This document shows, in pieces, positions 12,212 to 62,876 of a DNA stretch of 64,000 nucleotides. Below the pieces are notes generated by a model, which did not search any database, was not told the origin of the DNA, and saw only the letters and a list, made by a program, of their open reading frames with translations. Within the stretch, counting starts at the first letter, position 1. Each line of letters starts with the position of its first letter. The DNA comes from Pelagibius marinus. GTDB lineage: Bacteria; Pseudomonadota; Alphaproteobacteria; Kiloniellales; Kiloniellaceae. The stretch covers positions 186,001 to 250,000 of the forward strand of contig NZ_JACSDK010000013.1 in the NCBI RefSeq assembly GCF_014925385.1. The letters run 5' to 3'. Both the position numbers and the translations under genes were made by a program.

Positions 12212-12289
12212 ATGACCGGCCTTTCCCGCAAGCTCTCCGTCGCGCCGATGATGGACTTGCGGGGTATGCGCTACATTTCAGCCACTTAG
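12212..12289 (+). pseudogene. dusA: 5' fragment of dusA (tRNA-dihydrouridine synthase A), cut by island integration
   Basis: An ATG preceded by AGAGGG opens a 25-codon frame reading MTGLSRKLSVAPMMD and then unrelated residues to a TAG. SRKLSVAPMMDWTD is the conserved N-terminus of DusA, so the native start is present and the body is missing after MMD. The stretch lies downstream of the host-like lactate operon. dusA is an established integration hotspot for prophages and islands, which explains the cut. The frame is too short to make a working protein. Confidence 0.8.
12230..12257 (+). repeat. left attachment-site core in dusA (28-bp direct repeat, copy 1)
   Basis: 28 bp starting AAGCTCTCCGTCGCGCC and ending GATGGACT are identical to 62772-62799. 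The repeat lies inside the DusA N-terminal coding sequence (KLSVAPMMD). Copy 1 follows the native dusA start and marks the left boundary of a 50.5 kb island. Confidence 0.75.
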
Positions 12290-12296
12290 ACCATGC

Positions 12297-12327
12297 CGTG
12301 TGCACGGCGTGTGCAGCGACTTGTGCA
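12297..12327 (+). repeat. putative integrase arm-type repeats, left end of island
   Basis: CGTGTGCA occurs at 12297-12304 and 12308-12315, with CTTGTGCA at 12320-12327, so the spacing is 11 and 12 bp. They lie 40 bp inside the core repeat, and the same octamer recurs near the opposite end of the island (62512-62634). The layout matches arm-binding sites of tyrosine recombinases; the function is inferred. The 345-bp interval 12100-12445 otherwise holds only the terminator, the dusA fragment and these repeats. Confidence 0.45.
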
Positions 12328-12445
12328 ATGACAGCGGCTCGGCTGACGACACCGAGATGGTCGGAGTGCGACGTCGGGCGACCGTAAGGCGGGTTGGGAG
12401 GTCGCGAGGGCGCCGGTTCGCGCGCAGGCGAACGAGCGGACAGTT

Positions 12446-13771
12446 CTATTTGGCTGCGGCCTGCGGTAATGCCAGACTCGGCAACCTTGTGCGCAGGCCG
12501 GCGCTGACCGACTCGTGGATGTATTCGGGGAAGCCAGGCGGCAACGCCGCTTCCATTTGGGTGATGGCGTCGTCCGTCTGTGCCCGAACTTCTTCGATGG
12601 CCTCGCGGACGATGGCTTTGGGCAGGCCGGCACGCTCTGCGGTCTGGATGAAGTGGCGGCTGTGGATCTGGTCGATGCGGTAGCGGTTGTTGTCGCCGAC
12701 CGACATCGCAAGCTTCATCTGTTTGCGCTCGATCTGGCCGGCATCAAGGCTCGGCTGTGCGCTGAGGATGTCGTAGAGCGGTGTTAGAGAATAGCTACCG
12801 CCGGGGCGAAGAAAGATACTGAAGTTCTTGGCGTGGCCGTCCGTAGCTCCAATCAGCCAGAAGAGGATTTGTGTTTTCAGAACCAGCTTCTGATCTTCCG
12901 CCGGCGTGTCGCTGCCCTTGAGCAGGTTCAAGATGTCGACTATGCCGGGTCCCTCGTCGCTTTGATACTTGCGTGAAGGCGGGATGGAAAGCGCCTGACA
13001 GCAGTCTTCCTGCGGCACCCGCAGGAGGCGGCCGTCTCGGGTCCAGCGGCGGTCGAATCGTTCGATGACCAGCGCCGTCGTCTCGCCGAACGTTTGGATC
13101 TCGGCCTTGTTGACCGGAAGCTCGAACGCTTCGAAAAGCTTCAGACAGTAGTATTCGTTCTCGACACTGTTGGAGAGGTCGATCCCATTCGGCAGTTGGC
13201 CAATCTGAGTCTTGAAAAGATGCGTTGTCGGCGTCGTGCCGCGCGGCTTGAGCCACTGTCCCTCATAGCGGAGCAGCGCTGTCTTTTCCTGGGCGCCGGC
13301 GACCGAGATACGGAAGTCGTCGTCCCGGTCCAGACCGAGCGGCGCCTGGGCCAGATTGCGTAGCACCTTCTCGATGGCGACCTCATCGACGGGCTCGCCT
13401 TCAATCTCGGTGCTGTCGATTCCTTCGCCTGTTCCATCAGCGACGAACTGCAGAGCGCCCACGCAGTCGCGGCCGATCGCGGCAAGGAGGCTATACGCGT
13501 CAGTACCGCGGGAGCCGACTTTTTCGGCGACGCGTCGACGCAGGGGCTCGGAGTCCGGGAGCAGGTTCTCGAACACGGCCGCGACCGGCTCGCCCCGATA
13601 GGGATCTTCCCTCAGCGGCAGGGAGAGGGAGACCGGAATTGCCTGCTCCCAGTTCAGCCAGCTGGCGTTATAGCGAAAATCGATCGCGCCGCTCGGCTCC
13701 TTTGCCAGTTGACCGACGAGGCGGTTGTTCAGATAGAGGAGCAGCGGAGTGTGCTGGCGGCGGCGGGCCAT
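12446..13771 (-). CDS. hipA: HipA-type serine/threonine kinase toxin
   Basis: 441-residue HipA-family kinase. The N-terminal HipA_N region (about 1-110) has GAIDFRYNASWL and FENLLPDSE. The kinase core follows with the ATP-loop ISVAGAQEKTALL and the catalytic loop GATDGHAKNFSI, so the active-site residues are kept. E. coli HipA phosphorylates glutamyl-tRNA synthetase and causes growth arrest; the target here is unknown. The start overlaps the hipB stop by one base (TGATG on the minus strand), giving translational coupling. It is the first gene inside the left island boundary, fitting an island-maintenance role (inference). Confidence 0.93.
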   Translation of the reverse strand: MARRRQHTPLLLYLNNRLVGQLAKEPSGAIDFRYNASWLNWEQAIPVSLSLPLREDPYRGEPVAAVFENLLPDSEPLRRRVAEKVGSRGTDAYSLLAAIGRDCVGALQFVADGTGEGIDSTEIEGEPVDEVAIEKVLRNLAQAPLGLDRDDDFRISVAGAQEKTALLRYEGQWLKPRGTTPTTHLFKTQIGQLPNGIDLSNSVENEYYCLKLFEAFELPVNKAEIQTFGETTALVIERFDRRWTRDGRLLRVPQEDCCQALSIPPSRKYQSDEGPGIVDILNLLKGSDTPAEDQKLVLKTQILFWLIGATDGHAKNFSIFLRPGGSYSLTPLYDILSAQPSLDAGQIERKQMKLAMSVGDNNRYRIDQIHSRHFIQTAERAGLPKAIVREAIEEVRAQTDDAITQMEAALPPGFPEYIHESVSAGLRTRLPSLALPQAAAK

Positions 13772-14022
13772 CAGAACAGCGTCTCGATATCCGAGGGTTG
13801 GCCCTTCGATCGAGCGGCAAGCCGGAATTCAAGGTCCAACGCTGCCAGGACCGTGAGAATGGTATCCAGCCTGGTCGCTGGATTGCCTGTCTCGATGAGG
13901 GAAATCGTCTCTTGGCGCAGGCCGGTTTTTTCGCCGAGCTGCGTCTGGCTCCAGCCGCGCCGCTTGCGGGCGCGGCGCACCAGGTTGCCGATTTGTCGTG
14001 GTGTGCGGGCAAGCTCTGTCAT
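13771..14022 (-). CDS. hipB: HipB-type XRE antitoxin
   Basis: 83-residue antitoxin and autorepressor. The XRE HTH occupies about residues 8-65 (IGNLVRRARKRRGWSQTQLGEKTGLRQETISLIE), followed by a short tail that would contact HipA. ATG 14022 gives a normal HipB length; an upstream in-frame ATG (14085) would add a non-conserved stretch lying in the operator. No Shine-Dalgarno precedes 14022, and the best promoter places the transcript start at the ATG, so the mRNA may be leaderless. The gene is expected to bind the palindromes at 14044-14131 and repress hipBA. Confidence 0.9.
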   Translation of the reverse strand: MTELARTPRQIGNLVRRARKRRGWSQTQLGEKTGLRQETISLIETGNPATRLDTILTVLAALDLEFRLAARSKGQPSDIETLF

Positions 14023-14029
14023 GGAGCGG

Positions 14030-14131
14030 GTTATGACCCAGATCCGATAAATTGTCAATATCGGAATTGACGCATAAACAGACAATATGCGCTAGAGTCA
14101 ATAAATCTGGATTATCGGAATTAACGCATAA
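14030..14131 (-). promoter_or_regulatory. hipBA promoter and operator repeats
   Basis: On the minus strand, TTGACA (14058-14053) is separated by 17 bp from CATAAC (14035-14030), a good sigma70 match. CCGATA-N9-TATCGG (14044-14064) is an inverted repeat over the -35. An 18-bp near-identical direct repeat, ATCGGAATT(G/A)ACGCATAA, lies at 14060-14077 and 14114-14131, each with dyad symmetry of the TTAT-ATAA type seen in HipB operators. The rest of the upstream gap to 14260 is featureless. Confidence 0.6.
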
Positions 14132-14260
14132 TCCGTGCGCCGGAGACGCGGCTGCGACCGTAAACGAACAGGGCCGAGGCTCAAATTCGGCTGGTAGGCA
14201 GCGGTTGGTCCGCTTTCGGCCAACAAGCGGGCCACTCCTGCTCAAGTCCCGATTTCCGTG

Positions 14261-14403
14261 TTTGACCCGGTGCGGAAGTAGCGCCACACTCCATCGCAAA
14301 CGCTGCACCATTGCTTCGCACCGGCGCACTTGGCGATCTGGCCACTGCCGGCTTCAGCGTTGTCTTGTTTCCTGAGCAAAGGCCCCGATGTCCGTCGCAG
14401 ATA
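14261..14403. repeat. 143-bp dispersed repeat, copy 1
   Basis: This stretch, beginning TTTGACCCGGTGCGGAAGTA, is repeated at 31441-31583 in the same orientation with only three mismatches (14289, 14331, 14378). It lies in non-coding DNA and has no credible gene; GC-rich dyads are not obvious. It may be part of an unrecognised mobile or REP-like element. Confidence 0.8.
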
Positions 14404-14552
14404 CCGACTGCCAGCACCGCAAACGATGTCGCCTAGTGTGGTCGATCTGCCCTCCGAAGCCCAAGAACTCCGGCCAGATTGTCGCTTACGGCCAGGCCAC
14501 AGCAGTCTGAACTAACGAGTGGTATCAAACCCGGGGGCAAGTAACTATTGAC

Positions 14553-14574
14553 TTTGTCCGAACAATAGGACAAA
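14553..14574. promoter_or_regulatory. putative GntR operator upstream of the fumarase-like gene
   Basis: TTTGTCC-N8-GGACAAA is a perfect inverted repeat overlapping a TTGACT -35-like hexamer (14548-14553). Near-identical 22-bp copies lie at 17620-17641 and 27310-27331. The core GT-N4-AC fits the general HutC/FarR site shape, and a HutC-type regulator is encoded at 26487-27230. Confidence 0.6.
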
Positions 14575-14604
14575 ACGAGGTTGCGAATTCAACGGGTGCT
14601 TACG

Positions 14605-16017
14605 ATGGAAGTTCGGACCGAAACGGACGCATACGGCGAGATTGAGATTCCAGCCGGCTCCTACTGGGGGCCGCAGACTGAACGGTCGCGCGCATTGTTT
14701 GCTATCGGGGACGAGTATCTGCCGGTTGATGTAATTCATTGCTTTGGTGCCCAGAAAGCAGCAGCAGCGCGCGCCAACTGCGTGCTTGGCAAATTACCGG
14801 AGCATATCGCGACGGCGATAATCTCGGCTTCCGAAGAGGTGAGGGATGGGCGGTTCGACGACCAGTTTCCATTACCGATCTGGCAGACCGGTTCAGGTAC
14901 CCAGACGAATATGAACGCCAATGAGGTGATCGCCAATCGCGCGAACGAGTATCTCGGCCAGCCAATCGGGAAGCGCGCGCCTGTTCATCCAAACGATCAC
15001 GTCAACCTCGGACAGTCTTCCAACGATACCTTCCCAACAATCATGCATCTTTGCGCTCTCCGCGCTGTCTTCGGTATGCTCGCGCCAGCGACAAAGAGGC
15101 TCGTTTCAGCCCTCTCCACACGGTCGACGGAGTTTCGCGACCATATCAAGCTCGGCATGACACATCTCCAGGATGCGCTGCCGATCACACTTGGGAACGA
15201 GTTTCAGACATGGGAACTTCAGATCAAAGCGGCTTGGGACGCGATTGAGTTTCACGCCCTAAGCCTCCGCGAATTGCCGCAAGGGGGGACGGCCAGCGGA
15301 AGCGGCGTGAATGGATCGCCGCAGTTCGCTCAGATCGTTTGCGAAGACCTTTCCAGCTTTGCCGGAGTGCCGCTTTGTCCCAGCGCGGTTCCGTCGCAGC
15401 AAATGGCGGCACACGATGCGTTTGCAGGGTTGTGCGGCGCCCTGAACATGCTGGCCACCGCGATTCTGAAGACATGCAACGACATTCGGTTGCTGACCTC
15501 CAGTCTCGCTGGGCCTCCGTCGATCCTCCTGCCCGATGAGGGCTTGTCGTCCTCCGCCATGCCTTCAAAGCGGAATGCGACAGTATGCGAGGCTGTCATT
15601 CAGGCCTGTTTCCGGGTGATTGGTAACTCTGCGGCGGTTGTCGCGGCAAGTGGGGCCGGAACTTTGCAGCTCAATACATGCAAGCCGCTCATTCTGAACG
15701 AGACGATCAATTCCATTCGGCTTTTGGCTGATGCGCAATGTGTCCTCGCGACGGGGTGCATTGAAGGGCTGCAAGCCGATCGCGACCGACTCAGGCTGTC
15801 GCTCGAGACGTCCCCCGTTCTTGGAACTGTTTTGGCGCCGGTGCTCGGATACGACGTGGCGGCGAGGCTTATCCGTGATGCGACGGTGTCCGGCAGGCCT
15901 ATCCGAGAGGTGGTGGAGCAAAGCGGCCTGATGGACGCGGCCGCTTTCGACGAACACCTGGGCAAGGTGCTCGACCCGGACCGGCTCAATGGAAAGGCTT
16001 CCGCTCTAAGCGTCTGA
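14605..16017 (+). CDS. fumarase/aspartase-superfamily lyase (class II fumarase-like)
   Basis: 470-residue homotetrameric-type lyase of the fumarase/aspartase superfamily, which adds or removes water or an amine at a C-C bond alpha to a carboxylate. Conserved regions are YWGPQTERS, QTGSGTQTNMNANEV, VNLGQSSNDTFPT (catalytic-base neighbourhood THLQDALP) and the mobile signature loop. The loop reads SSAMPSKRN (about residues 316-324) instead of the usual GSSxMPxKxN, an unusual variant. The start ATG 14605 is chosen over an upstream TTG because fumarases begin about there. It is followed 50 bp later by an aldehyde dehydrogenase. It could be a housekeeping-type fumarase or a lyase for a related dicarboxylate; operon context favours a dedicated catabolic role. 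Confidence 0.82.
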   Translation: MEVRTETDAYGEIEIPAGSYWGPQTERSRALFAIGDEYLPVDVIHCFGAQKAAAARANCVLGKLPEHIATAIISASEEVRDGRFDDQFPLPIWQTGSGTQTNMNANEVIANRANEYLGQPIGKRAPVHPNDHVNLGQSSNDTFPTIMHLCALRAVFGMLAPATKRLVSALSTRSTEFRDHIKLGMTHLQDALPITLGNEFQTWELQIKAAWDAIEFHALSLRELPQGGTASGSGVNGSPQFAQIVCEDLSSFAGVPLCPSAVPSQQMAAHDAFAGLCGALNMLATAILKTCNDIRLLTSSLAGPPSILLPDEGLSSSAMPSKRNATVCEAVIQACFRVIGNSAAVVAASGAGTLQLNTCKPLILNETINSIRLLADAQCVLATGCIEGLQADRDRLRLSLETSPVLGTVLAPVLGYDVAARLIRDATVSGRPIREVVEQSGLMDAAAFDEHLGKVLDPDRLNGKASALSV

Positions 16018-16067
16018 TGCCGGCCGGTGAACGGCTGGTGAATTGCAGGACAAGGGAACGTACTACG

Positions 16068-17492
16068 ATGCAGGACTATAAGCTGCTGATCGACGGGGAA
16101 GAGCGAGTTGGTGGGGCCGGACATTGGCAAGATGTCCTGAATCCCGCGACTGGTGAGGCGATTGGGCGCGTCACCCATGCGACGACCGATGATCTGGACG
16201 ATGCAATGAATACAGCCTTGCGCGGCTTGACGGAGTGGCGCTCGGTCACCCCGTGGCAGCGAGGGGCGATCCTCAAGAAGTCAGCTGATATTCTTCGTTC
16301 GCGCAAGGAAGACCTCGGTCTTGCCATGACGCATGAGCAGGGCAAGCCCTTGCGGGAGGCAATTGCAGAAGTGGACCGCTCCGCCGACTTCATGGAATGG
16401 GGCGGTGAGCAGGCGCGTCGGATAACCGCGGACGGCCTGATCGGTCGCGATATAGGGAACCGCATCGTGATCGAACGGCATCCGATTGGTGTCGTTGCCG
16501 CATTCACACCCTGGAACTTTCCCATGGCCCTCGCTGCGAAGAAGTTCGCTGGTGCCTTGGGTGCCGGTTGTTCGATCATCTGCAAGCCCGCGGAGGAGAC
16601 GCCGGCCTCCGTTCTCGGATTGGTTCAGGCACTCCTTGAAGCCGGCGTCACTCCCGCCACTGTCGGTGTCGTCTTCGGCGTCCCGTCGGAAGTCTCGTCC
16701 TATATGATACCGTCGCCTCAGATTTCGAAGATCACCTTCACGGGCTCCATTCCCGTCGGGAAGCTCCTCGCCGCGGAAGCCGGAAAAGTCATGAAGCCGG
16801 TGACCATGGAACTCGGCGGACACGCGCCGGTGATCGTCTGCAAGGACACGGATCCGGAGGCTTTGGCCGACTATCTCGTCCCGAAAAAATTCTTCAACGC
16901 AGGACAGATTTGCATTTGCCCGACGCGCTTCTTTGTCGAAGACGAGGTTCACGATCGCTTCCTCGACCGGTTCGTCGCCAGGGCCAAGGAAATTCGCGTG
17001 GGCGACGGCGCGCTCGCGGAGACCCAAATGGGCCCGCTTGCCAGCGAGAAGCGGCTCCAGGCGATATCCGGACTCGTTGAGGATGCCCGCGCCAGGGGCG
17101 CCGACATTCTGACCGGTGGGCACCGTGTCGGGAACAGCGGGAACTTCTACGCGCCGACGGTTCTGGCAAACGTTCCGAACGACGCCAAGATCCTGAACGA
17201 GGAACCCTTTGGGCCGCTTGCGCCCGTCATCCGCTTCGATGACGAGGACGAGATGCTGCGCCAGGCAAACGGGCTCGAATACGGTCTGTCCGGTTATCTC
17301 TTCACGAATGACGCTTCCCGACAGCGCCGGCTGTCCGACGCGCTCCAGGTCGGAACCGTCGGCATCAACGATATTCCCACGCATATCCCGGAGGTGCCGC
17401 TCGGCGGCTGGAAGGAGAGCGGATATGGTACGGAGGGGGGGCAGTCGATCCTCGAGCCGTATCAGAAGACGAAGTTTGTGAGCCAGCGCTAA
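16068..17492 (+). CDS. NAD(P)-dependent aldehyde dehydrogenase (succinate-semialdehyde dehydrogenase-like)
   Basis: 474-residue ALDH. The catalytic Cys is C282 in GQICIC and the general-base Glu lies in TMELGGHAP; the cofactor loop FTGSIPVG and the PWNFP strand are intact. Overall similarity is to the GabD (semialdehyde dehydrogenase) branch. The ATG at 16068 is taken because the upstream extension has no conserved residues. It follows the fumarase-like gene at 50 bp and a hairpin terminator follows, so these two form a bicistron under the 14553 operator. The substrate is unknown; a C4 semialdehyde is plausible given the neighbouring lyase. Confidence 0.88.
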   Translation: MQDYKLLIDGEERVGGAGHWQDVLNPATGEAIGRVTHATTDDLDDAMNTALRGLTEWRSVTPWQRGAILKKSADILRSRKEDLGLAMTHEQGKPLREAIAEVDRSADFMEWGGEQARRITADGLIGRDIGNRIVIERHPIGVVAAFTPWNFPMALAAKKFAGALGAGCSIICKPAEETPASVLGLVQALLEAGVTPATVGVVFGVPSEVSSYMIPSPQISKITFTGSIPVGKLLAAEAGKVMKPVTMELGGHAPVIVCKDTDPEALADYLVPKKFFNAGQICICPTRFFVEDEVHDRFLDRFVARAKEIRVGDGALAETQMGPLASEKRLQAISGLVEDARARGADILTGGHRVGNSGNFYAPTVLANVPNDAKILNEEPFGPLAPVIRFDDEDEMLRQANGLEYGLSGYLFTNDASRQRRLSDALQVGTVGINDIPTHIPEVPLGGWKESGYGTEGGQSILEPYQKTKFVSQR

Positions 17493-17508
17493 GGGGGACG
17501 TTACTGGA

Positions 17509-17534
17509 GGGGAAGGAGTCAGGCAGCCTTCCCC
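17509..17534 (+). terminator. hairpin after the aldehyde dehydrogenase gene
   Basis: GGGGAAGG (17509-17516) pairs with CCTTCCCC (17527-17534) around a 10-nt loop, 16 bp after the stop. It separates the lyase/dehydrogenase pair from the ABC-transporter operon, which has its own operator at 17620. Confidence 0.6.
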
Positions 17535-17619
17535 TTAGGTCGCCGCCCTATCTCCCCAATCTGGTCTGACAAGCCGTGAAACACGGAACTAGCCAAAAAG
17601 GGAGTCGGTCAAATTTGAA

Positions 17620-17641
17620 TTTGTACGAACAAACGGACAAA
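17620..17641. promoter_or_regulatory. putative GntR operator upstream of the Liv-type operon
   Basis: TTTGTACGAACAAACGGACA plus AA matches 14553-14574 at 19 of 22 positions and again overlaps a -35-like TTGAAT (17615-17620) with the same offset. It lies 61 bp before livG. This is a strong hint that the lyase/dehydrogenase pair and the transporter operon are co-regulated. Confidence 0.6.
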
Positions 17642-17701
17642 AGGGGGCTCGGCGATGCGGGGCAAACCGGCGCGTAGATCGAAAAGGGAAGGAAAAGTGC
17701 C

Positions 17702-18439
17702 ATGTTGAAGGCCCGTGATGTGACGGTCCGGTTTGGCGGCGTTGTTGCTGTCGGCGGCATGAGCATCGACGTTCATGCCGGCGAGATCGTCGGGCTCATT
17801 GGCCCGAACGGTGCCGGAAAGACCACTTTCATAAACGCGGTCTCCGGCACGTATGTCCCGACGCAAGGGACAATCAGCTGGCGCGACGAGGATATCGTTG
17901 GTCACTCGCCGAGCCGCCTCGCGCGGATCGGGGTGGGCAGAACGTTTCAGAATGTCGCTTCCCTTAACGATCTGACTGTGCTGGATGTCGTAAAGGTCGG
18001 CCGGTCTGTGCACGGCCATTCGCGGGGCCTGCGTGAATTCCTTTGCGGGAGCCGCGCCGACGATGAGGCACTGACGGAACGATTGCTGGAGCCGCTGGGC
18101 CTGGCCGACCACCGTCACAGTCCCCTCCAGATGCTCTCCTATGGCCACCGAAAGGCGGTCGATATCGCGCGCGCACTCGCAAGCGAACCGGACCTTCTTC
18201 TCTTGGATGAACCCGTTGCCGGTGTTGCGCCTGCCGAGGCTTTCGCGCTCGCCGGCTTCGTCAAGCAGGTCCGGGATCTGCTCGGCTGCGCAGTCGTCAT
18301 GGTCGAGCACAAGATGGACGTGGTCATGAGCACCTGCGACCGCGTCGTCGTGATGGCGGAGGGCTGCAAGATCTTTGACGGCTCGGGTGAGGCAGCGCAA
18401 TCCGACGCCGAAGTCCGTCGGGTATATCTGGGAGATTAG
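17702..18439 (+). CDS. livG: branched-chain-type ABC transporter ATPase (LivG)
   Basis: 245-residue ATPase of the HAAT (branched-chain amino acid/amide) ABC family. Walker A GPNGAGKTT is at residues 34-42, the Q-loop in VGRTFQNV, the family-typical signature variant LSYGHRKAVDIARAL, Walker B LLLLDEP and the H-switch in MVEHKMD. An AGGGAAGGAAAAG site precedes the ATG. It starts an operon with two permeases, a binding protein, LivF, an SDR and a molybdenum hydroxylase with tight spacing, so the transporter supplies the substrate of those enzymes rather than leucine. Confidence 0.92.
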   Translation: MLKARDVTVRFGGVVAVGGMSIDVHAGEIVGLIGPNGAGKTTFINAVSGTYVPTQGTISWRDEDIVGHSPSRLARIGVGRTFQNVASLNDLTVLDVVKVGRSVHGHSRGLREFLCGSRADDEALTERLLEPLGLADHRHSPLQMLSYGHRKAVDIARALASEPDLLLLDEPVAGVAPAEAFALAGFVKQVRDLLGCAVVMVEHKMDVVMSTCDRVVVMAEGCKIFDGSGEAAQSDAEVRRVYLGD

Positions 18440-18441
18440 CG

Positions 18442-19356
18442 ATGTTCGTCTTGCAACTCGCTGTCGCCGGTATCGCTATCGGTAGTGTCTATGCACTCAT
18501 CGCTTTGGGCATCGTTCTGATCTACAAATGCTCCGGCGTAGTAAACTTCGCGCAAGGCGGCTACGCCATGCTCGGGGCTTTCATCACATATGGACTGACC
18601 TCTGTCGGGCTGCCGTCGGTGATTGCCTTGGTCCTCGCAATCGCCGTAATGGGCGGGCTCGGTGCGCTAACCCAGATCCTCGTTCTTCGCCCTATGCTGA
18701 AGGCGCCTGTCGTTGCCGTCATGATGGCGACACTCGGAATCCTGATCACGTTCCGCGCCGTCTGTCTCTTGATCTGGGGACCCGATCAGATCGGATTTCC
18801 CGCGTTGTTCCCGATCGGGGCGATCGAGCTCAGCGGGATCTTCATGACCTACAACTACATTGCCGCATTCTTGCTGTCAGCCATCCTCTGTGCGGGTTTC
18901 CTCGCCTTTTACCACTACACGCCGATTGGGCTGATGCAGCGCTGTACGGCAGACAATACGCGCGCCGCGCTCGCCGTCGGGATCCATGTCAGCAATCAGG
19001 TGACCATCGCGTGGACGGCGTCAGCCATGTTGGCCGGCCTCGGCGGTGCGCTGCTCGCCTCCCTGAACGGTCTTTCTCTCGGTCTGTCGAATATCGGTCT
19101 CGTCGCTTTCCCGGTCATCGTTTTGGGTGGAATGACAAGCCTGCCGGGCGCGGTCGTTGCGGGACTTGTTCTCGGCATTCTCCAAGCCGTGACGGACGGA
19201 GTGCTTACTCCCGCGATCGAGCGCTTTCTTCGCGAGCACACCGACATCTACTCGGTCGGGACCCTGCAACAGGTCATTCCATACGCCCTGTTGGTGCTCG
19301 TACTACTCGTACGGCCGCAGGGAATCTTCGGGACAAAGGAATCGGAGCGGGTATAG
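18442..19356 (+). CDS. livH: branched-chain-type ABC permease (LivH)
   Basis: 304-residue inner-membrane permease with about eight hydrophobic helices. The LivH signature NFAQGGYAMLGAFITY is near residue 35, and the cytoplasmic coupling segment AVGIHVSNQVTIAWTASA with LGGMTSLPGAVVAGLVLG is near 170-235. It begins 2 bp after livG. It pairs with the following LivM to form the channel. Confidence 0.92.
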   Translation: MFVLQLAVAGIAIGSVYALIALGIVLIYKCSGVVNFAQGGYAMLGAFITYGLTSVGLPSVIALVLAIAVMGGLGALTQILVLRPMLKAPVVAVMMATLGILITFRAVCLLIWGPDQIGFPALFPIGAIELSGIFMTYNYIAAFLLSAILCAGFLAFYHYTPIGLMQRCTADNTRAALAVGIHVSNQVTIAWTASAMLAGLGGALLASLNGLSLGLSNIGLVAFPVIVLGGMTSLPGAVVAGLVLGILQAVTDGVLTPAIERFLREHTDIYSVGTLQQVIPYALLVLVLLVRPQGIFGTKESERV

Positions 19357-19358
19357 AC

Positions 19359-20387: not shown

Positions 20388-20430
20388 GAGGACGTATGAC
20401 AGCTGCACTACACAATAGGAGGAGAATGCC

Positions 20431-21597: not shown

Positions 21598-21622
21598 CAA
21601 ACAGGGAGGGGAGCATTCCGTC

Positions 21623-22336: not shown

Positions 22337-22410
22337 TGGAACCGCGGGTCGACGAATCGATACGGATGGCTGAAGCGACCAACCTTTAACCTGAATTTTG
22401 GGAATAAGAC

Positions 22411-23199: not shown

Positions 23200-23253
23200 G
23201 GTCGCCTCGAAGAGCGACTGGCTTTTGGGCTTTGGCAAAAGGGAAGGAAAGTT

Positions 23254-23706
23254 ATGAGCGTGACGATCAAGGTGAATGGTGCCGAGCACAGGTTGGAGAT
23301 TGACGGCGACACGCCGCTGCTGTGGGCCATCCGGGACAATCTGGGTCTGACGGGAACGAAGTTTGGATGCGGGATCGCGGCCTGTGGGGCCTGCACCGTG
23401 CATGCCGACGGTGAAGCGATACGCTCCTGCTCCGTCTCGGTGGCGGATGCCGCCGGATGGGATATCCGCACGATCGAGACTTTGTCCGAAGAATCGCTCA
23501 ACCCGATTCAGCAAGCTTGGCTGGACCTTGATGTTCCACAATGCGGTTACTGTCAGTCCGGCATGATCATGGCGGCGACAGCCCTCATCAATGAGAGCCG
23601 TAGCCCGAGCGACGCCGATATAGACGAAGCGATGTCGAATATCTGTCGTTGTGGAACCTACAATCGGGTCCGTGCCGCGATACATGCGGCGGTCCGGTCG
23701 ATTTGA
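23254..23706 (+). CDS. [2Fe-2S] subunit of a molybdenum hydroxylase (IorA-like)
   Basis: 150-residue iron-sulfur subunit of the xanthine oxidase family. The plant-type cluster ligands are in FGCGIAACGACTVHADG and the second, helical cluster ligands in CGYCQSGM and CRCGTY. Size and order (small subunit followed by a large Tat-exported subunit without a separate FAD subunit) match isoquinoline 1-oxidoreductase-type enzymes. It transfers electrons from the Mo site of the next gene product to an external acceptor, perhaps a cytochrome c. It may be exported together with its partner. Confidence 0.92.
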   Translation: MSVTIKVNGAEHRLEIDGDTPLLWAIRDNLGLTGTKFGCGIAACGACTVHADGEAIRSCSVSVADAAGWDIRTIETLSEESLNPIQQAWLDLDVPQCGYCQSGMIMAATALINESRSPSDADIDEAMSNICRCGTYNRVRAAIHAAVRSI

Positions 23707-51928: not shown

Positions 51929-51936
51929 GGTTTTCC

Positions 51937-53415
<1,479 letters not shown>

Positions 53416-53418
53416 GCG

Positions 53419-54441: not shown

Positions 54442-54464
54442 CAATACTCATTGAGGACCCAACC

Positions 54465-55784: not shown

Positions 55785-56527
55785 CGGGTAGGTTCTCTGG
55801 CAAAACCGCTCTCGTGACCGGCGGCGCCGGCGGCATTGGCGCGGCGATCTGCCGGCGGTTGGCCGCCGAAGGGGCGCAGGTGGTGATCTGCGACTTGAAT
55901 GCCAAAGCCGCGGCGGCCTTGGCTGGGGAGATCTGCAGCGCCAGCGTGGAGAGAGTGGACATCGCAGACGGCGCGGCGGCGCGGGCGATGATCGAGCGCG
56001 TGGTGGCCGCGCATGGGCGGCTGGATGTCCTCTGCAACAACGCCGGGGTAAACCGACGGGGTGACCTGCTGAGCCTCACCGAGGTGGACTGGATGGCGTC
56101 CTTCGCCATCAATCTCCATGGCATGTTCCATCTCTGCCGGGCGGTGCTGCCGCACATGATCGAGGCCGGCGGTGGCGCGATCGTGAACACCGCCTCGCAG
56201 TGGGGGCTTTACCCGGCACCGGGCCATATCGCCTACAACACCTCCAAGGCGGCGGTGGCGGCCTTCACCCGGAACCTGGCGCGGGACTACGCACCGCAGA
56301 AGATCCGCGTCAATGCGGTATGTCCCGGTGAAGTGCGCACACCGATGCTCGAATCGAACCTCGCGCGCACCGGTCGCAGCCTTGACGACTTGAACGCTCT
56401 CGTCCCCTACGGCCGCATCGGCGAACCGGAGGAGATCGCCGCCCTGGTCGCCTTCCTCGCCTCCGATGAGGCGCCCTACCTGTGCGGCGCGCTGGTGGAG
56501 ATCACGGGCGCACAGGCGGTAGCGTAG
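55781..56527 (+). CDS. short-chain dehydrogenase/reductase
   Basis: 248-residue classical SDR with TGGAGGIGAA, CDLNAKAA (Asp after beta-2, NAD preference), NNAG, Ser in NTASQWG and YNTSKAAV. The GTG start overlaps the aminotransferase stop (GTGA), implying translational coupling. Substrate unknown; a hydroxy-acid or the keto product of the aminotransferase is possible. Confidence 0.9.
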   Translation: MTGRFSGKTALVTGGAGGIGAAICRRLAAEGAQVVICDLNAKAAAALAGEICSASVERVDIADGAAARAMIERVVAAHGRLDVLCNNAGVNRRGDLLSLTEVDWMASFAINLHGMFHLCRAVLPHMIEAGGGAIVNTASQWGLYPAPGHIAYNTSKAAVAAFTRNLARDYAPQKIRVNAVCPGEVRTPMLESNLARTGRSLDDLNALVPYGRIGEPEEIAALVAFLASDEAPYLCGALVEITGAQAVA

Positions 56528-56539
56528 AGGAAAGCCCAC

Positions 56540-57292
56540 ATGTTCGATCTGAAAGGCAAGACCATTCTCGTGACCGGCGCCACGCGCGGCATCGGCGCGG
56601 CCGTCGTGGCTGAGATCCATGTGGGGGGCGCCAATGTCATCGGGCATTTCGGCCGCAATGCCGGGTATGCCGAGGCGATGCAGAAGCAATATCCCGAGCG
56701 CCTACATCTTGTGCGGGCCGATCTGAAAGATCCGGCCGGTGCCGACAGGCTCTGGCACGAGGCACTAGCGGTCCACGGCAGGATAGACGTGCTGGTCAAC
56801 AACGCGGGCATTTACCTGGCCTCGCCGCTGGATGATGCGACGGCATGGGTGCGGAGCTGGGCCGAGAATATCCAGGTGAACCTTCAGGCGCCAGCCGACC
56901 TCTGCCGCCATGCGATCCGGCACTTCCAGGCCATCGGTGGCGGGATCATCGTCAACATGGCGAGCCGGTCGTCCCATCGCGGCGACGGGCCGGAACACCT
57001 TGCCTACGGCGCGGCCAAGGGCGGCCTTCTGGCACTGACCAAGGGGATCGCCCGGGGCTATGCCCACGAGAACATCCTCGCCTATGCCATTGCGCCGGGG
57101 TGGGTGCGGACTGCCATGGCCGAGGAGCATATCGCCACGGTCGGCGAAGAGGCAGTGACTGCCGCTCTGCCTCTGCGGGAAGTGACACCGCCCGAGGATG
57201 TGGCTGCGATGGTCGCTTTCCTGGCCTCGGGCCGCTGCCGCCACGCAACCGGTTGCACAGTGGACATCACCGGTGCTGAATACGTGAGGTAG
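56540..57292 (+). CDS. short-chain dehydrogenase/reductase
   Basis: 250-residue classical SDR with TGATRGIGAA, NNAG, Ser in NMASRSSH and YGAAKGGL. It is 12 bp after the preceding SDR with an AGAGGAAAG site. Last gene of the amino-acid cluster. The two adjacent SDRs are clearly different sequences rather than a fresh duplication. Confidence 0.9.
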   Translation: MFDLKGKTILVTGATRGIGAAVVAEIHVGGANVIGHFGRNAGYAEAMQKQYPERLHLVRADLKDPAGADRLWHEALAVHGRIDVLVNNAGIYLASPLDDATAWVRSWAENIQVNLQAPADLCRHAIRHFQAIGGGIIVNMASRSSHRGDGPEHLAYGAAKGGLLALTKGIARGYAHENILAYAIAPGWVRTAMAEEHIATVGEEAVTAALPLREVTPPEDVAAMVAFLASGRCRHATGCTVDITGAEYVR

Positions 57293-57387
57293 CCCGATGG
57301 CCTCCTTGGCGGCGAGGGCCTAATCTTTCTGATCGAGAGTTCCACAAAGCGCCCAATCCCGATTGTCTGCTATCCCCTGATGGAGAC

Positions 57388-57588
57388 TTACTTCCCCTCA
57401 GTCGAATCGCCTCCACCCTCGGCTCGCAGAGAGAGTCCGAGAGATGTCGGCTCATAATCGACCCTTGGCGGAACGACGGGGTAGACGGTGCGCTTTTCAA
57501 GGCAATCTTGCTCAAGACCTCGCAGGCGCAATGTGAGCATTCTCCCGGAGATGCCGTCGACATCCCGCTTCAGGTCAGAGAATCGACG
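57388..57588 (-). pseudogene. HxlR-family regulator fragment, N-terminus missing
   Basis: Minus-strand frame reads RRFSDLKRDVDGISGRMLT, then LRLRGLEQDCLEKRTVYPVV and PPRVDYEPTSLGLSL, the wing and C-terminal part of HxlR-type regulators. The first HTH helices are missing at about 57588, where an NmrA fragment begins on the other strand. The open frame runs further but into unrelated codons. Confidence 0.7.
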
Positions 57589-57705
57589 CGGACCGGCATC
57601 GCCGCCGCTAATGCCGCCTTTGCTGCGGGCGTCGAACACTTCATCTATGCGTCCGTGGGCGGCGCAGAACCGGCGTGCAAGTCTCCTACTGGCAGTTTTT
57701 GTTGA
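57589..57705 (+). pseudogene. NmrA-type NAD(P)-binding protein fragment
   Basis: The frame reads RTGIAAANAAFAAGVEHFIY then ASVGGAE, the conserved second helix and strand of NmrA/NAD(P)-binding Rossmann proteins. The N-terminal cofactor motif is missing on the left and an IS1182-type element starts at about 57697. About 300 bp of intact promoter and 5' sequence between this and the HxlR gene appear to be lost. Confidence 0.65.
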
Positions 57706-59280
57706 TTTAGTCCCTCGGTGACGCGGTTTTGGTGTCCGCTTCTGACAGTAGCGGACATCCGGTGCCGGCCTTCTGGCCGGTTTTCTTGGGACGGGGGTGT
57801 TCCGGTACTTTGCTGGTGAATCAGATCCTCATGTCATTCATGCTGGCTTAGCACATGGCGGCGGCTCTGGTCTGAGCTTGGCGAGCTTTCTCAGGTTCTG
57901 GGCCGTTGCGGCGAGCAGGAACTCGTCGTGCGCGCCACAAGGTCCTCGCAGCCGCAACCGGCCCAGCTTTAAGATGCGCTTGAGATGGGCGAACAGCATC
58001 TCGACGCGCTTGCGCTCACGGCGCGACTGGTCAAAGGCGGGCGTGTCGTAGAGGGCTCTGGCGACGTCGCGGGCGTCCTCATGGATATCGCGTGGGATCT
58101 TGCGATGTGGGGCCTTGGGACAGCATCTCTGTTTGAGAGAACAGGATTCGCAGTCGTACTTGCTGGACCTGTAGAGCAGGGTGCGGCCGTCGTGCACCTT
58201 ACCCGTGGTCTTGAGCGTCTTGCCGGTGGGGCAGACATAGAGGTTGCGCACGTCATCCCAAGTGAAGTCGGCTCTGGAGAGGGTGCCGTCCTCGCGCTTT
58301 GATTTGTCAAAGACGGGGATGTGCGGAGCGATGCCCCGTTCCTTGACCAGCCAGGCCAGCATCGGCGCGGCGCCATAGGCGCTGTCACCGGCAAGCCGCT
58401 TGGGATGCAGACCGAAGCGCTCGCGCGTCCGGTCGATCATGGTGCGCGCGGCTCCCACCTCGGCCTGGCGGATCGCCCGCGTCGCCTCGACGTCGACGAT
58501 CACTGCGTCCTGCGTGTCGATCAGGTAATTCGTCGCATAGGCAAAGAAGGCCGGGCCGCGCTGGGCGCCAGTCCACTGGGCGGCCGGATCGGAGGGTGAG
58601 ACGAACTTCGGTGTCACCGTGGTGGCCGCCCCGAAGGCGGCGTCATCAAGGTGGGCCAGGTAGTCCCTGACTGCCTGGCCGGCATCGGCCGGGATCTCCT
58701 CGAGGCGCCACTTATCCCCGCGCACCGAGCGCTGCTTGTTGGCGTCGGCCTGGATGAGGCTGGCATCGACCGCGAAACCCTCACCGCCAACCAGACCCTC
58801 CATCATGCAGCGCTGCACGACGCTCTCGAAGAGGTGGCGCAGGATGTTGCTCTGCCGGAAGCGGCCGTGGCGGTTGCGCGAGAAAGTCGAGTGATCAGGC
58901 ACCTTGCCATCCAGACCCAGGCCGCAGAACCACCTGTAGGCCAGGTTCAGGTGAACTTCCTCGCACAGCCGACGCTCCGAGCGAATGGCAAAGCAGTAGC
59001 CCACGATCAGCATGCGGATCATCAACTCGGGATCGACCGAGGGCCTGCCGATGGTGCTGTAGTGCCCGGCCAGTTCCCGCCGCACGCTGCCAAGATCGAG
59101 GAAATGATCGATCTGGCGCAACAGGTGGTCAGCCGGAACGTGATCATCCAAGCAGAAGTCGTAGAACAGCCGATCCGGCGCCGCATGTGTTCCCATCATC
59201 GCTCAGTCCTCCTCGCCAACACCCTAGGAAGACGGAATCACGGCTCCGGACCGCATTCAAGGCCGACTAAATCAACAGAA
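57697..59280. mobile_element. complete IS1182-family insertion sequence
   Basis: Terminal inverted repeats TTTTGTTGATTTAGTC (57697-57712) and its complement GACTAAATCAACAGAA (59265-59280) match at 15 of 16 positions and enclose one transposase gene. The element is about 1.58 kb. No clear target duplication was found. It interrupts the NmrA relic. Confidence 0.75.
57838..59199 (-). CDS. IS1182-family DDE transposase
   Basis: 453-residue transposase with the N-terminal DUF772 domain (SVDPELMIRMLIVGYCFAIR, RWFCGLGLDGKVPDHSTFSR) and the DDE catalytic core (VDASLIQADANKQ; LAGDSAYG; RKRVEMLFAHLKRI). A zinc-ribbon-like CESCSLKQRCC lies before the last helix, as usual. The frame is intact, so the element may be active. 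Confidence 0.93.
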   Translation of the reverse strand: MMGTHAAPDRLFYDFCLDDHVPADHLLRQIDHFLDLGSVRRELAGHYSTIGRPSVDPELMIRMLIVGYCFAIRSERRLCEEVHLNLAYRWFCGLGLDGKVPDHSTFSRNRHGRFRQSNILRHLFESVVQRCMMEGLVGGEGFAVDASLIQADANKQRSVRGDKWRLEEIPADAGQAVRDYLAHLDDAAFGAATTVTPKFVSPSDPAAQWTGAQRGPAFFAYATNYLIDTQDAVIVDVEATRAIRQAEVGAARTMIDRTRERFGLHPKRLAGDSAYGAAPMLAWLVKERGIAPHIPVFDKSKREDGTLSRADFTWDDVRNLYVCPTGKTLKTTGKVHDGRTLLYRSSKYDCESCSLKQRCCPKAPHRKIPRDIHEDARDVARALYDTPAFDQSRRERKRVEMLFAHLKRILKLGRLRLRGPCGAHDEFLLAATAQNLRKLAKLRPEPPPCAKPA

Positions 59281-59554
59281 TCGGCACGAAGGTGAAGTGC
59301 GCGAACAACAACTCTTGGTCCGCTTTGCGTCACGCAGCGGACGCGACCTGCGGGAGCTTAGGACGTCAGCGGCTGCCGAAGGATGACGCCGGTAGGCTGC
59401 TGGGCGCTGGGGGTAGGACGAGGAGCGCGCGTTCGAAGTGACCGCGACTCTCGTGCCGTGCCACGCCGGGAGACGTCTACTTCCCGGCAGCAGCGACTGG
59501 GGCTTGCGGGCAACGGCTTAAGCCACGCCGTGCACGACCCTGTGCACAAAGGGT

Positions 59555-59576
59555 GGCGGAGCAGATCTGCTCCGCC
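59555..59576. terminator. 22-bp perfect palindrome downstream of the XRE gene
   Basis: GGCGGAGCAGA followed directly by its complement TCTGCTCCGCC. It lies 48 bp after the XRE gene stop and is followed (minus strand) by CACCCTTTG, so it may be its terminator. The remaining part of 59281-59623 has no gene. Confidence 0.5.
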
Positions 59577-59623
59577 GCCGTTGAACCCTGAGCCCGCTGT
59601 TCGTCGGGGCTCAATGCCGTGAT

Positions 59624-59947
59624 CTAGCTCGCATAGACAACGTTGATTTTTCCAGGCGTCTTGCGCCGCCGGATCGGCTTCACCCGGATCTCGACGTCAT
59701 TGCCGAGCGCCGTCAGGCAGTCGAGCATCTTGGCTTCGCTGATGCCCCGGAACCGGCCGCGCAGCATGTCGGCAACCTTGCCTTGGCTCAGGCCCATCAT
59801 CGCCGCGGCTTCCTTCTGAGTCAGCTTCCGCCGCTTAATGATCCGGCCGATGTTCACGGCAAGCTGGGCCTTGACCAGCATTGCTTCGGCATCGAGAAAC
59901 CCAAGGTCGACGTAGACGTTACCGGAGCTTTCTCCGATCTTGGTCAT
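59624..59947 (-). CDS. XRE-family antitoxin-like regulator (HigA2-like)
   Basis: 107-residue protein with a central XRE HTH (IKRRKLTQKEAAAMMGLSQG, then ADMLRGRFRGISEAKMLDCL) and a beta-rich C-terminus ending INVVYAS. The layout is typical of HigA/XRE antitoxins encoded with RelE/HigB toxins; none is visible upstream, and the only adjoining intact gene is fic. It has a GGAGGGCAAGAAAG site. Whether it controls fic is unknown. Confidence 0.85.
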   Translation of the reverse strand: MTKIGESSGNVYVDLGFLDAEAMLVKAQLAVNIGRIIKRRKLTQKEAAAMMGLSQGKVADMLRGRFRGISEAKMLDCLTALGNDVEIRVKPIRRRKTPGKINVVYAS

Positions 59948-60126
59948 CTTTCTTGCCCTCCTTGGCGTGTGCTTCTGCTTCCTTCAACCGGCTGCCGGTC
60001 CGGTAAGGTCGCTCTCTGCCAGTCGAAGGATTGACAGATTGTGCACCTGCGGATCCTGCGGGGATCGAGTCCAGCATTCTTTCGGCACCTGGTCTAGACT
60101 GGGTGATTACTTTGGTCCCGCTCGCG

Positions 60127-61686
60127 TCAGCCGCCGCCATCACTGAAGACCTCTTCACAGATCGCCTCAATGTGTGCCGCTTCCTCATCGGTCAAGGCAG
60201 CGAACTCCTTCTCGCGGCGTCTCTTCGGCAGCTTGCCGTTGTTCTGCCGGATAAACATGATCAGGTCCTGGGCCAGGCGGTCCGGCATCTCGACCGCCTC
60301 CATGATGCGCCGCTGCGCTTCGTCGTGACGGCGCAGATAGTCGATCTCTTCCGGCAGGTCGTGTTCGACCGTGCGCGCGACGCAGGAGTAGAGGAATTCG
60401 GCTTCGTCCGTGCAATCAAAGTATCGGTAAAGATCGGTCGTCTCGTTCAGGACCTCGACATTGCGGTCTGCGGTCGGACGCCAGTCGATGAAAGGCATCA
60501 GCGGACCAGAGTGCCCCTGCAACGTATGCCGGTAGTCGTCGATCCGGTCGAGCATGACCGACGAGACCGGAAACACCATGCCTTGCGGCGTGAAGTCCCG
60601 CTCGGCCAGCACGTGATGGATCAGGCAGCGGTGCAGGCGTCCGTTCCCGTCCTGATACGGGTGGACGTAGACGAAGCCGAACGCCGTGGCGGTCGCCTGG
60701 AGCACTGGATCGATGCCGCTCGCGCTCATCCGATCATTGGCGGCGAGCAAGCCGTCCAGCAGGTCCGGCAGGTCGTCCGGCCGCGCACCAATGAATTCCG
60801 GCAGGGGATCGCCGTTTTCATCGCGTTCGCCGAGGAAGGCTCCGTCGGGGCGCAGACCGGCCCGGATGAAACGTGTGTCCTCGATCAGAACACCGTGCAG
60901 TCGGTTCAGCTCGTCGAGTGTCAGAGGATTTTTGCCGGCCTGGAGGACTGCACGACCCCATCGTTCCAGCCGGTTGTGTGGCGGGCGCTCGCCTTCGATC
61001 GCGAAGCTGGCGCGGCTGTCCGCCAGCAGCAGGAAGCTCGCGGCGCGAGCGACGAGTTGTCCGCTGGTGCGCCCCAATGTTTCGGCGGCCTTCGTGGAGA
61101 GCGCACGTGCGCCATATTCCTCGAGCGCCGAGGTACGCCGGATGACTGGGCAGTAGCTGCCCGCCCCGAGCAGGTTATCCCGTACCCGGTGCCGCTTCGA
61201 GACCACCGGCTTCGCTGTCACATAAGTCTTCGGGTCGAGCGCTTCGGTGGCCGTCACCGTTGGCGCGTCGTCGATCGGCAGCCGCTTGCCGGTCATGCTC
61301 TCGTAGAAGAACCAGAGCCGGCGCGCGACCGTCCCGGTCGGTGCTTTTCTGACGAACTCCGCGATGACGTCCGGATCCACGGCATCGAACACCCGTTTGA
61401 GAACGAGAGGGTCGAACTGCTCATGGCGAAGGGCGAAGCTGATATGGTCGGCGACGCTGTCGCCCGGCCAGTAGCGCTTGTCGAAGATGGTCCAGTCGCC
61501 TTCTGCGCGGTGACTGCCCTTGATATGGCCACCGGCAACGGTGCTCACCGCCCGGACCGGCGCGGCAATGCCGAGGCCGTAAACCAGTGCCGCCCAGCCG
61601 GCCAGCCTCTTGCCCTTCGGGACAAGCCGGTCCTGGAACGTCGTTGGCGTGGCGAAATTGAGCTCCATCGGTCGAAATTCTTTCAT
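60127..61686 (-). CDS. Fic-family AMP-transferase
   Basis: 519-residue Fic protein with a conserved catalytic motif HPYQDGNGRLHR (about residues 341-352; His, Asp, Arg all present) and an N-terminal inhibitory helix motif SFAIEGE (about residue 226) of the S/T-x3-E-G/N type, placing it in the class with an intramolecular inhibitor. An N-terminal extension (about 1-190) and a C-terminal winged-helix-like region (LPKRRREKEFAALTDEE) flank the Fic core. ATG 61686 with GGAGG 14 bp upstream is the likely start. It probably transfers AMP to a target protein; the target is not known. No separate FicA-type antitoxin is needed if the inhibitory helix works. Confidence 0.92.
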   Translation of the reverse strand: MKEFRPMELNFATPTTFQDRLVPKGKRLAGWAALVYGLGIAAPVRAVSTVAGGHIKGSHRAEGDWTIFDKRYWPGDSVADHISFALRHEQFDPLVLKRVFDAVDPDVIAEFVRKAPTGTVARRLWFFYESMTGKRLPIDDAPTVTATEALDPKTYVTAKPVVSKRHRVRDNLLGAGSYCPVIRRTSALEEYGARALSTKAAETLGRTSGQLVARAASFLLLADSRASFAIEGERPPHNRLERWGRAVLQAGKNPLTLDELNRLHGVLIEDTRFIRAGLRPDGAFLGERDENGDPLPEFIGARPDDLPDLLDGLLAANDRMSASGIDPVLQATATAFGFVYVHPYQDGNGRLHRCLIHHVLAERDFTPQGMVFPVSSVMLDRIDDYRHTLQGHSGPLMPFIDWRPTADRNVEVLNETTDLYRYFDCTDEAEFLYSCVARTVEHDLPEEIDYLRRHDEAQRRIMEAVEMPDRLAQDLIMFIRQNNGKLPKRRREKEFAALTDEEAAHIEAICEEVFSDGGG

Positions 61687-61803
61687 CAAGGTCGAAGAGA
61701 CCTCCAAGGAGGCCCGCCTAGTCGATATTTACCATACCACGGAATGGTCGAATTTCTTTCATTGAAATCGAAATATGCCACAAAATACATACATGGGTCG
61801 AAA
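61670..61803 (-). repeat. GGTCGAA repeats over the fic promoter
   Basis: GGTCGAA occurs at 61670, 61690, 61746 and 61796. Two copies are part of a 17-bp near-repeat GGTCGAA(A/T)TTCTTTCAT at 61670-61686 and 61746-61762, the first covering the fic start codon. The arrangement suggests a multi-site operator for fic; no cognate protein is identified. Confidence 0.5.
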
Positions 61804-61911
61804 ATAACTACATATCTTGTGGCTACGCCACATTGGCAATAGGTCGATCCGTCGCCTGCGGTTTGCTATTTTGCCCGTCCCGCCCCACAGGAGTTACGCG
61901 TCGAGGTCGCC

Positions 61912-62331
61912 ATGAGCCCCGCACTCGAGCGAGACTTGATCGAGAGGTATCCGAAGCTGTTTGCCGATTACGGCGCGGCGCCCGACAAGTCCGCGATGGC
62001 ATTCGGTTTCGAGTGTGGCAACGGCTGGTTCGATCTGCTGGATGCGCTCTGCGCGCAGCTCTCCAAACTGAAGCCGGCCGGCGAGTCCGACGATCCGCTG
62101 CCGCTCACCGCACTCCAGGTGAAAGAGAAGTACGGAACCCTGCGGTTCTATCTTGGTGCCTGCAGCGACGAGGTGCTTGCTCTCGTAGAACTCGCCGAGG
62201 CGATGAGCGCGGGGATCTGCGAGACTTGTGGGAACAGGGGGCGGACCCGCGGGATGACCTGGCTCAAGACGCTCTGCAGTTCCTGCGCTCGCGAGCAGGG
62301 CTACGCGGAGACGGAAACTGAAGCCCCATAA
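61912..62331 (+). CDS. hypothetical protein with C-terminal zinc-ribbon
   Basis: 139-residue acidic protein with no family I can name. The N-terminal half is helical (RDLIERYPKLFADYGAAPDK; MAFGFECGNGWFDLLDALCA; KEKYGTLRFYLGACSD). The C-terminus has a treble-cysteine pattern CETCGNRGRTRG...LCSSC consistent with a zinc ribbon. Similar proteins of this shape are common in mobile elements. It is the last intact gene before the right attachment repeat. Confidence 0.8.
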   Translation: MSPALERDLIERYPKLFADYGAAPDKSAMAFGFECGNGWFDLLDALCAQLSKLKPAGESDDPLPLTALQVKEKYGTLRFYLGACSDEVLALVELAEAMSAGICETCGNRGRTRGMTWLKTLCSSCAREQGYAETETEAP

Positions 62332-62511
62332 GAGTTTACGCCTCCACCAACACTCTGCCATCACCGTGCTCAAGCAGCTCTGCGAACTCTACGGATGTTC
62401 TGAGACGGTAATCACCTGACAGTCGGCCGGCGCCGGACCGCGGCCCCGTTCGCGATGGGGCCGAGATCACCTCAACACCAGCGGTTTGGGTCCCGCCATG
62501 CACGACCTCTT

Positions 62512-62634
62512 CGTGTGCACAAGGACGTGTGCCGCCACCTGGCCGCGTCGCGTTCTAGACCGTCTGGACCGATAATCCAGCAAGGCCAAGAGTTTGAGCT
62601 ACCCCACATACGTCTCGTGTGCACTATGTGTGCA
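62512..62634 (+). repeat. putative integrase arm-type repeats, right end of island
   Basis: CGTGTGCA at 62512-62519 and 62616-62623, TGTGTGCA at 62627-62634 and CGTGTGCC at 62526-62533. The pair at 62616/62627 has the same 11-bp spacing as the pair at 12297/12308. The 62332-62753 interval has no gene; it includes these repeats. Confidence 0.45.
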
Positions 62635-62753
62635 TCCGCACCACGAGCTTTGCGAAGTTGCCGTCGAAGCGCCGCGCAGACAAGGTCTTGATATCAGAGG
62701 GAAAAGCGGGATAACGTGGCGCTGCTAGCGTCGAACTAAAATTATCAAATGAA

Positions 62754-62799
62754 ATGAATAACTTAAGTCGGAAGCTCTCCGTCGCGCCGATGATGGACT
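62754..62799 (+). repeat. dusA: right attachment core with replacement dusA start (28-bp repeat copy 2 at 62772-62799)
   Basis: The frame from ATG 62754 reads MNNLSRKLSVAPMMDWTG, an alternative DusA N-terminus that the island would give back to the host gene. 62772-62799 is identical to 12230-12257. After WTG the DusA sequence does not continue (SKNAVKLNTKG), so the rest of the host gene is further right, beyond another insert. No strong ribosome site precedes ATG 62754. Confidence 0.75.
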
Positions 62800-62858
62800 G
62801 GACGGGCGTTTCGAAAAACGCCGTAAAATTAAATACTAAGGGTTCTCGTGTTTTCGAT

Positions 62859-62876
62859 GTTGTACCCTCGTTGTAC
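62859..62876 (+). repeat. arm-like repeats of a second element
   Basis: GTTGTAC at 62859-62865 and 62870-62876, again 11 bp apart and 60 bp inside the core repeat, as at the left end of the first island but with a different sequence. Suggests the start of another dusA-integrating element. From 62877 to 63071 no gene was found. Confidence 0.45.

What the first reader, a model, noticed from the sequence alone, without database searches (positions are those of the whole stretch)
12212..62876. A 50.5 kb catabolic island bounded by duplicated dusA 5' ends, with a second element directly behind it
The sequence shows 28 identical bp at 12230-12257 and 62772-62799, both inside codons for the DusA N-terminus (KLSVAPMMD). 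The left copy has the native-looking start MTGLSR, the right copy a replacement start MNNLSR, as expected when an element inserts into the 5' end of a gene and restores it. dusA is a known integration hotspot. After the right copy the DusA frame breaks again, so a second element appears to be inserted at the same site. Cargo is unusual for this class: transporters with three or more full catabolic pathways rather than phage genes.
Basis: partly seen in the sequence, partly recalled or inferred. Interest (0 to 1): 0.75.

Follow-up and report, generated by a model that had tools for sequence, protein, structure and literature searches.

The report
Two stranded gene islands in dusA
Two foreign DNA blocks (50.5 kb and 9.7 kb) carrying nutrient-breakdown and uptake genes sit end to end in the start of a tRNA-modifying gene, each giving it a new start, but neither still carries the integrase that put it there; this is a clear but decayed example of a known kind of island.

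Summary
The 28-bp repeat at 12230-12257 and 62772-62799 is exact and codes for the DusA N-terminus. The order is native dusA start, element 1 (50.5 kb), replacement start, element 2 (9.75 kb), replacement start, intact dusA. Genus-mate G007 has the empty site: one uninterrupted dusA joining the window's left flank to the distant dusA body.

The two right ends are 87% identical over 130 bp. Element 1 has paired GTGTGCA boxes 11 bp apart at both ends, placed much as in relatives with a dusA-associated integrase; I read these as integrase arm sites.

Neither element carries a tyrosine recombinase, and no dusA-type integrase was found in this genome. Several relatives keep only an integrase N-terminal stub, whereas G040, G015 and G058 keep full-length copies. 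These are therefore dusA-specific genomic islands decayed into att-flanked elements without integrase, accreted in tandem (CIME-like). Catabolic cargo and tandem dusA insertion are both already reported. New member of a known kind; interest modest.

The parts
12177..12257 (+). native dusA leader, start codon (ATG 12212) and first codons, cut off from the gene (left att copy, core 12230-12257)
   Evidence: aligns to the uninterrupted dusA of G007 with one mismatch and one 1-base gap
12258..62771 (.). element 1 (E1), 50.5 kb, GC 0.620 against 0.70 in native flank
   Evidence: absent from G007 and not seen in the fetched dusA upstream regions of the other six genus-mates
12298..12315 (+). E1 left arm-type boxes: GTGTGCA x2, 11 bp apart (a third TGTGCA at about 12322)
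   Evidence: same +56/+67 offset in G040
12446..13771 (-). HipA-like toxin kinase; HipB-like HTH antitoxin directly upstream (about 13770-14020)
14261..14403 (.). 143-bp repeat, 98% identical to 31441-31583; the pair brackets a 17-kb sub-module
14581..26307 (+). cargo module A: fumarase/aspartase-type lyase, ALDH, branched-chain amino-acid-type ABC transporter, SDR, 2Fe-2S and Mo-cofactor hydroxylase subunits
26487..32474 (-). regulators (GntR/UTRA, AraC, MarR) with an IS21 IstB fragment (27275-27772) and an old-yellow-enzyme fragment (29856-30281): eroded zone
32604..40761 (+). cargo module B: FAA hydrolase, 3-hydroxybenzoate 6-monooxygenase, TRAP transporter DctPQM, VanA-type Rieske oxygenase and reductase, gentisate dioxygenase
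41278..57292 (+). cargo module C: LysR (-), ALDH, GntR (-), polar amino-acid ABC transporter, DapA-like, D-amino-acid dehydrogenase-like, ALDH, proline racemase family, class III aminotransferase, SDRs
57838..59199 (-). IS transposase (DUF772/DDE)
   Evidence: part of it 81% like a stub at window coordinate 72022-72229 in E2
60127..61707 (-). Fic-domain protein, PADLOC candidate family PDC-S24
62617..62634 (+). E1 right arm-type boxes GTGTGCA x2, 11 bp apart
62672..62799 (+). E1 right end: replacement leader and dusA start (ATG 62757) with att core 62772-62799
   Evidence: 87% identical over 130 bp to the E2 right end at 72418-72547
62800..64000 (.). E2 (9.7 kb) left part; continues to window coordinate 72517 (G000:C13:258517); left boxes TTGTAC x2, 11 bp apart, at about 62859 and 62870; HTH gene 63072-63884 (-)
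   Evidence: Beyond the window: peptidase S15, solute-binding protein, two permeases, fused double ABC ATPase; IS debris; third core 72518-72545; intact dusA 72500-73495

Best explanation
Two dusA-specific genomic islands integrated one after the other at the same att site in the 5' end of dusA. A dusA-associated tyrosine integrase recombined the element's att with the chromosomal core, leaving the native dusA start stranded on the left and giving the remaining gene an element-borne leader and start codon. A second event at an att site left behind placed E1 and E2 in tandem, with the outermost replacement start now heading the intact dusA. Both islands then lost their integrase, which should lie divergent from and directly upstream of each replacement start; in E2 that spot now holds IS debris. 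What remains is an att-flanked, integrase-less pair carrying catabolic and transport operons. Shown: three att cores, the empty site, the replacement starts, paired terminal boxes, absence of a recognisable integrase. Inferred: the enzyme used, the order of insertion, the function of the boxes, and that dusA is expressed from the new leader.
For: Third core and intact dusA. Empty site in G007: its dusA start matches the window's left flank and its body matches the gene at 72.5 kb at 92%. In silico joining of the native start to the distant dusA body gives an open frame with the same N-terminus as G007. GC 0.62 in both elements against 0.69-0.72 in native flanks. Two right ends 87% alike over 130 bp. 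Five of the eight GTGTGCA in the window lie within 300 bp inside the E1 ends, and the 11-bp-spaced pair occurs only at the two ends. The left pair sits at the same offset as in G040, and dusA-integrase-bearing relatives have 11-bp-spaced boxes of this type near -141/-130. Full-length integrases lie divergent to dusA in G040, G015 and G058, N-terminal stubs in G001, G002 and G047. No integrase in the window plus 17 kb.
Against: No integrase, excisionase or mobilisation gene was found in either element, so the enzyme is inferred from the sites alone. E2's right end lacks recognisable arm boxes. The arm-box function is not proven, and its statistics were computed after the motif was seen. No sigma-70-like promoter was called in either replacement leader. 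The genome is a draft (35 contigs), so an integrase in a gap cannot be excluded.
Confidence: 0.88

Rival explanations
1. One 60-kb island acquired as a unit (already composite) rather than two separate integrations in this lineage; the middle core is a relic inside it.
For: Both elements have nearly the same GC (0.620 and 0.624); the literature notes that composite tandems can transfer whole (PMC5704250).
Against: The two elements carry different putative left arm boxes (TGTGCA against TTGTAC), suggesting separate integrase lineages at some point. No genome with either element alone was found, so the history stays open.
Confidence: 0.3
2. The islands are not dead: an integrase supplied in trans by another element can still excise E1, E2 or both.
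For: The cores are intact and E1 keeps boxes at both ends.
Against: No dusA-type integrase in this genome; its eight tyrosine recombinases show only weak similarity to dusA integrases (for example 37% over 62 aa); no PrtN/RdfN-like gene found, although that search also rang in none of the control genomes and so is uninformative.
Confidence: 0.3
3. Homologous recombination or IS-mediated capture duplicated the dusA start, without site-specific integration.
For: IS sequences exist inside E1 and E2.
Against: The breakpoints fall at the known dusA att position in all three copies, with replacement starts and no IS at the junctions.
Confidence: 0.03

Closest known systems
dusA-specific genomic islands (Farrugia et al. 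2015, PMC4482086)
   Same: Target at the dusA 5' end, direct-repeat att sites, replacement dusA start, size (known 4.8-185 kb), mosaic cargo including metabolic genes
   Different: The integrase, the one universal feature of that set, is missing from both elements
CIME, cis-mobilizable element, in a tandem accretion (reviewed in PMC5704250)
   Different: CIMEs are described there as decayed ICEs or IMEs; here the parental class is dusA islands of unknown transfer mode, both partners lack the integrase, and mobilisation was not tested
Tandem dusA elements IEVpaBan1a/b in Vibrio (PMC8409611)
   Same: Two distinct elements side by side at one dusA
   Different: IEVpaBan1b codes for two integrases and an RdfN homolog and IEVpaBan1a has an IntdusA; here both elements lack an integrase and carry catabolic cargo

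Membership tests
dusA-specific genomic island | Inserted at the conserved 5' position of dusA with direct-repeat att sites | tested here: met
   Three cores; empty site in G007
dusA-specific genomic island | Element supplies a new dusA 5' end that restores the frame | tested here: met
   MNNLSR/MNSLSR starts; intact 331-aa ORF
dusA-specific genomic island | dusA-associated integrase, 5' end adjoining dusA 5' end (universal in the 94 known) | tested here: not met
   No PF00589 hit on contig C13, no integrase remnant by tblastn, no N-terminal match in the genome. So it is a derivative of the family, not a complete member
dusA-specific genomic island | Excises as a circle | not testable with these tools
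   Needs PCR
CIME in tandem accretion | attL and attR kept, integration genes lost | tested here: met
   Cores kept at both ends of each element; integrase absent
CIME in tandem accretion | Conjugation/mobilisation genes lost | tested here: inconclusive
   No relaxase or transfer domain in the ORFs scanned with Pfam; not every short ORF was scanned, and whether such genes were ever present is unknown
CIME in tandem accretion | Can be mobilised in cis by an incoming related element | not testable with these tools
   Needs an experiment

The most novel reading that the evidence does not exclude
dusA in this lineage works as a layered trap: successive islands insert with different integrases at one core, lose the integrase soon after, and the stranded att-flanked cargo becomes permanent catabolic content, with dusA headed each time by the newest leader. 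Four low-GC blocks within 71 kb (6540-12176, E1, E2, 73501-77541) and integrase stubs in several relatives would fit such repeated capture and decay.
Probability: 0.25. Interest if true: 0.45.

Novelty: new member of a known kind. Interest (0 to 1): 0.3.

Why it matters
It shows how catabolic gene clusters can become fixed in a chromosome through a tRNA-modification gene: the island rebuilds the gene's start, loses its integrase, and stays. A precise empty site in a close relative makes the acquired 60 kb unambiguous. Island finders that rely on an integrase would miss both elements, so dusA-type islands may be undercounted where only att copies or integrase stubs remain.

Tried and rejected
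Searched for integrase relics with dusA integrases from four relatives: only chance hits, plus an artefact in which the over-extended L163 frame matched dusA antisense. Reading the reverse frames upstream of E1's right end as an integrase stub was too weak to claim. Promoter scan of the replacement leaders found nothing. PrtN/RdfN search gave nothing, but also nothing in the controls. The HipA end of E1 has an 85% relative in G003:C42, but with no dusA core in the DNA read there, so it is not evidence of the same island end. Plasmid searches found only partial cargo similarity, best 25% of the right half in Mameliella alba. A scan of dusA loci for a second upstream copy found one other genome (G047) with two broken copies 6.7 kb apart; 39 sequences had no hit to the strict pattern, so no frequency is claimed.

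Full report
Observation. The 28-bp repeat is exact and in frame in both places; about 3e-7 such repeats are expected by chance in 64 kb. The window is G000:C13:186001-250000. Beyond its right edge the contig carries a third copy (27/28, one change) at window coordinate 72518, beginning a complete 331-aa dusA.

Empty site. Of seven genus-mates examined, G007 has the closest DusA (92%). Its dusA is uninterrupted: the leader and start codons match window 12177-12257, and from the core onward it matches the gene at 72.5 kb. Joining the native start to the distant dusA body in silico gives an open frame with the same N-terminus as G007. E1 and E2 have GC 0.620 and 0.624, the native flanks 0.70, 0.72 and 0.69. 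Two further low-GC blocks nearby are also absent from G007: 6540-12176 (0.628; GntR regulator, TRAP transporter, FMN-dependent dehydrogenase) and 73501-77541 (0.608; response-regulator protein and histidine kinase).

Ends. The right ends of E1 and E2 are 87% identical over 130 bp, covering the replacement leader and start. E1 has GTGTGCA pairs 11 bp apart at both ends (12298/12309 and 62617/62628), the only two such pairs in the window. The left pair has the same offset from the core as in G040, and relatives with a dusA integrase have 11-bp-spaced boxes of this type upstream of dusA. E2's left end has TTGTAC twice, 11 bp apart, closer to the TGTAC-type boxes of G058. I infer arm-type integrase sites of two specificities; this is post hoc and untested.

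Integrase. Farrugia et al. 2015 (PMC4482086) give the integrase as the only universal feature of dusA islands, its 5' end adjoining dusA. In G040, G015 and G058 a full-length integrase is in that position; G001, G002 and G047 keep an N-terminal stub. In our genome there is none: no PF00589 hit on the contig, no tblastn relic in 81 kb, no match to the integrase N-terminus in the genome. E2's right end instead holds IS debris, 81% like part of the IS at 57838-59199.

Cargo. Module A: lyase, ALDH, branched-chain-type ABC transporter, SDR, Mo-hydroxylase subunits. Module B: 3-hydroxybenzoate 6-monooxygenase (above the NCBIfam cut-off), gentisate dioxygenase (441 bits, cut-off 442.1), FAA hydrolase, TRAP transporter, Rieske oxygenase with reductase; no maleylpyruvate isomerase was recognised. 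Module C: polar amino-acid ABC transporter, proline racemase family, DapA-like, D-amino-acid dehydrogenase-like, ALDH, aminotransferase. E2 carries a peptidase S15 and an oligopeptide-type ABC transporter. HipBA lies at E1's left end and a Fic protein of a candidate defence family near its right end. A 143-bp repeat brackets a 17-kb sub-module, so E1 itself looks assembled.

Mechanism. Most likely two integrase-mediated insertions at one core, in an order the anatomy cannot tell (insertion at the attL of E2 and at the attR of E1 give the same structure), followed by loss of both integrases. Shown: cores, empty site, replacement starts, absence of integrase. Inferred: the enzyme, the order, the role of the boxes, expression of dusA from the new leader.

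Known context. Metabolic cargo at dusA, replacement of the dusA start, and tandem elements at dusA (IEVpaBan1a/b) are published (PMC4482086, PMC8409611). Decay of an island to an att-flanked CIME and tandem accretion is a described route (PMC5704250). The present case combines these. I file it as a derivative of the dusA-island family that fails one defining feature, the integrase, and works like a CIME tandem.

Noticed in passing
window 6540-12176: A further low-GC block (0.628) directly left of the dusA leader, with GntR regulator, TRAP transporter and FMN-dependent dehydrogenase, absent from G007 and not bounded by a dusA copy.
   Followed up: partly
G000:C13 window coordinates 73501-77541: A 4-kb low-GC block (0.608) directly right of dusA, absent from G007; it covers a response-regulator protein and a histidine kinase.
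   Followed up: partly
window 14261-14403 and 31441-31583: 143-bp direct repeat, 98% identical, bracketing a 17-kb part of E1; could be a recombination or IS-related scar.
   Followed up: no
window 60127-61707: Fic-domain protein matching PADLOC candidate defence family PDC-S24 at E=1.9e-182, near E1's right end, with an HTH_37 gene at about 59.7 kb.
   Followed up: partly
G047:C112:61981 and 68669 (L064:4981 and 11669): Two broken dusA starts 6.7 kb apart, with an integrase stub beside the second; the DusA search found only a 33% paralogue in that draft genome.
   Followed up: partly
G001, G002 and G047 upstream of dusA (L167, L166, L160): Integrase N-terminal stubs without a catalytic domain beside the dusA start, suggesting that integrase loss at dusA is common in this order.
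   Followed up: partly
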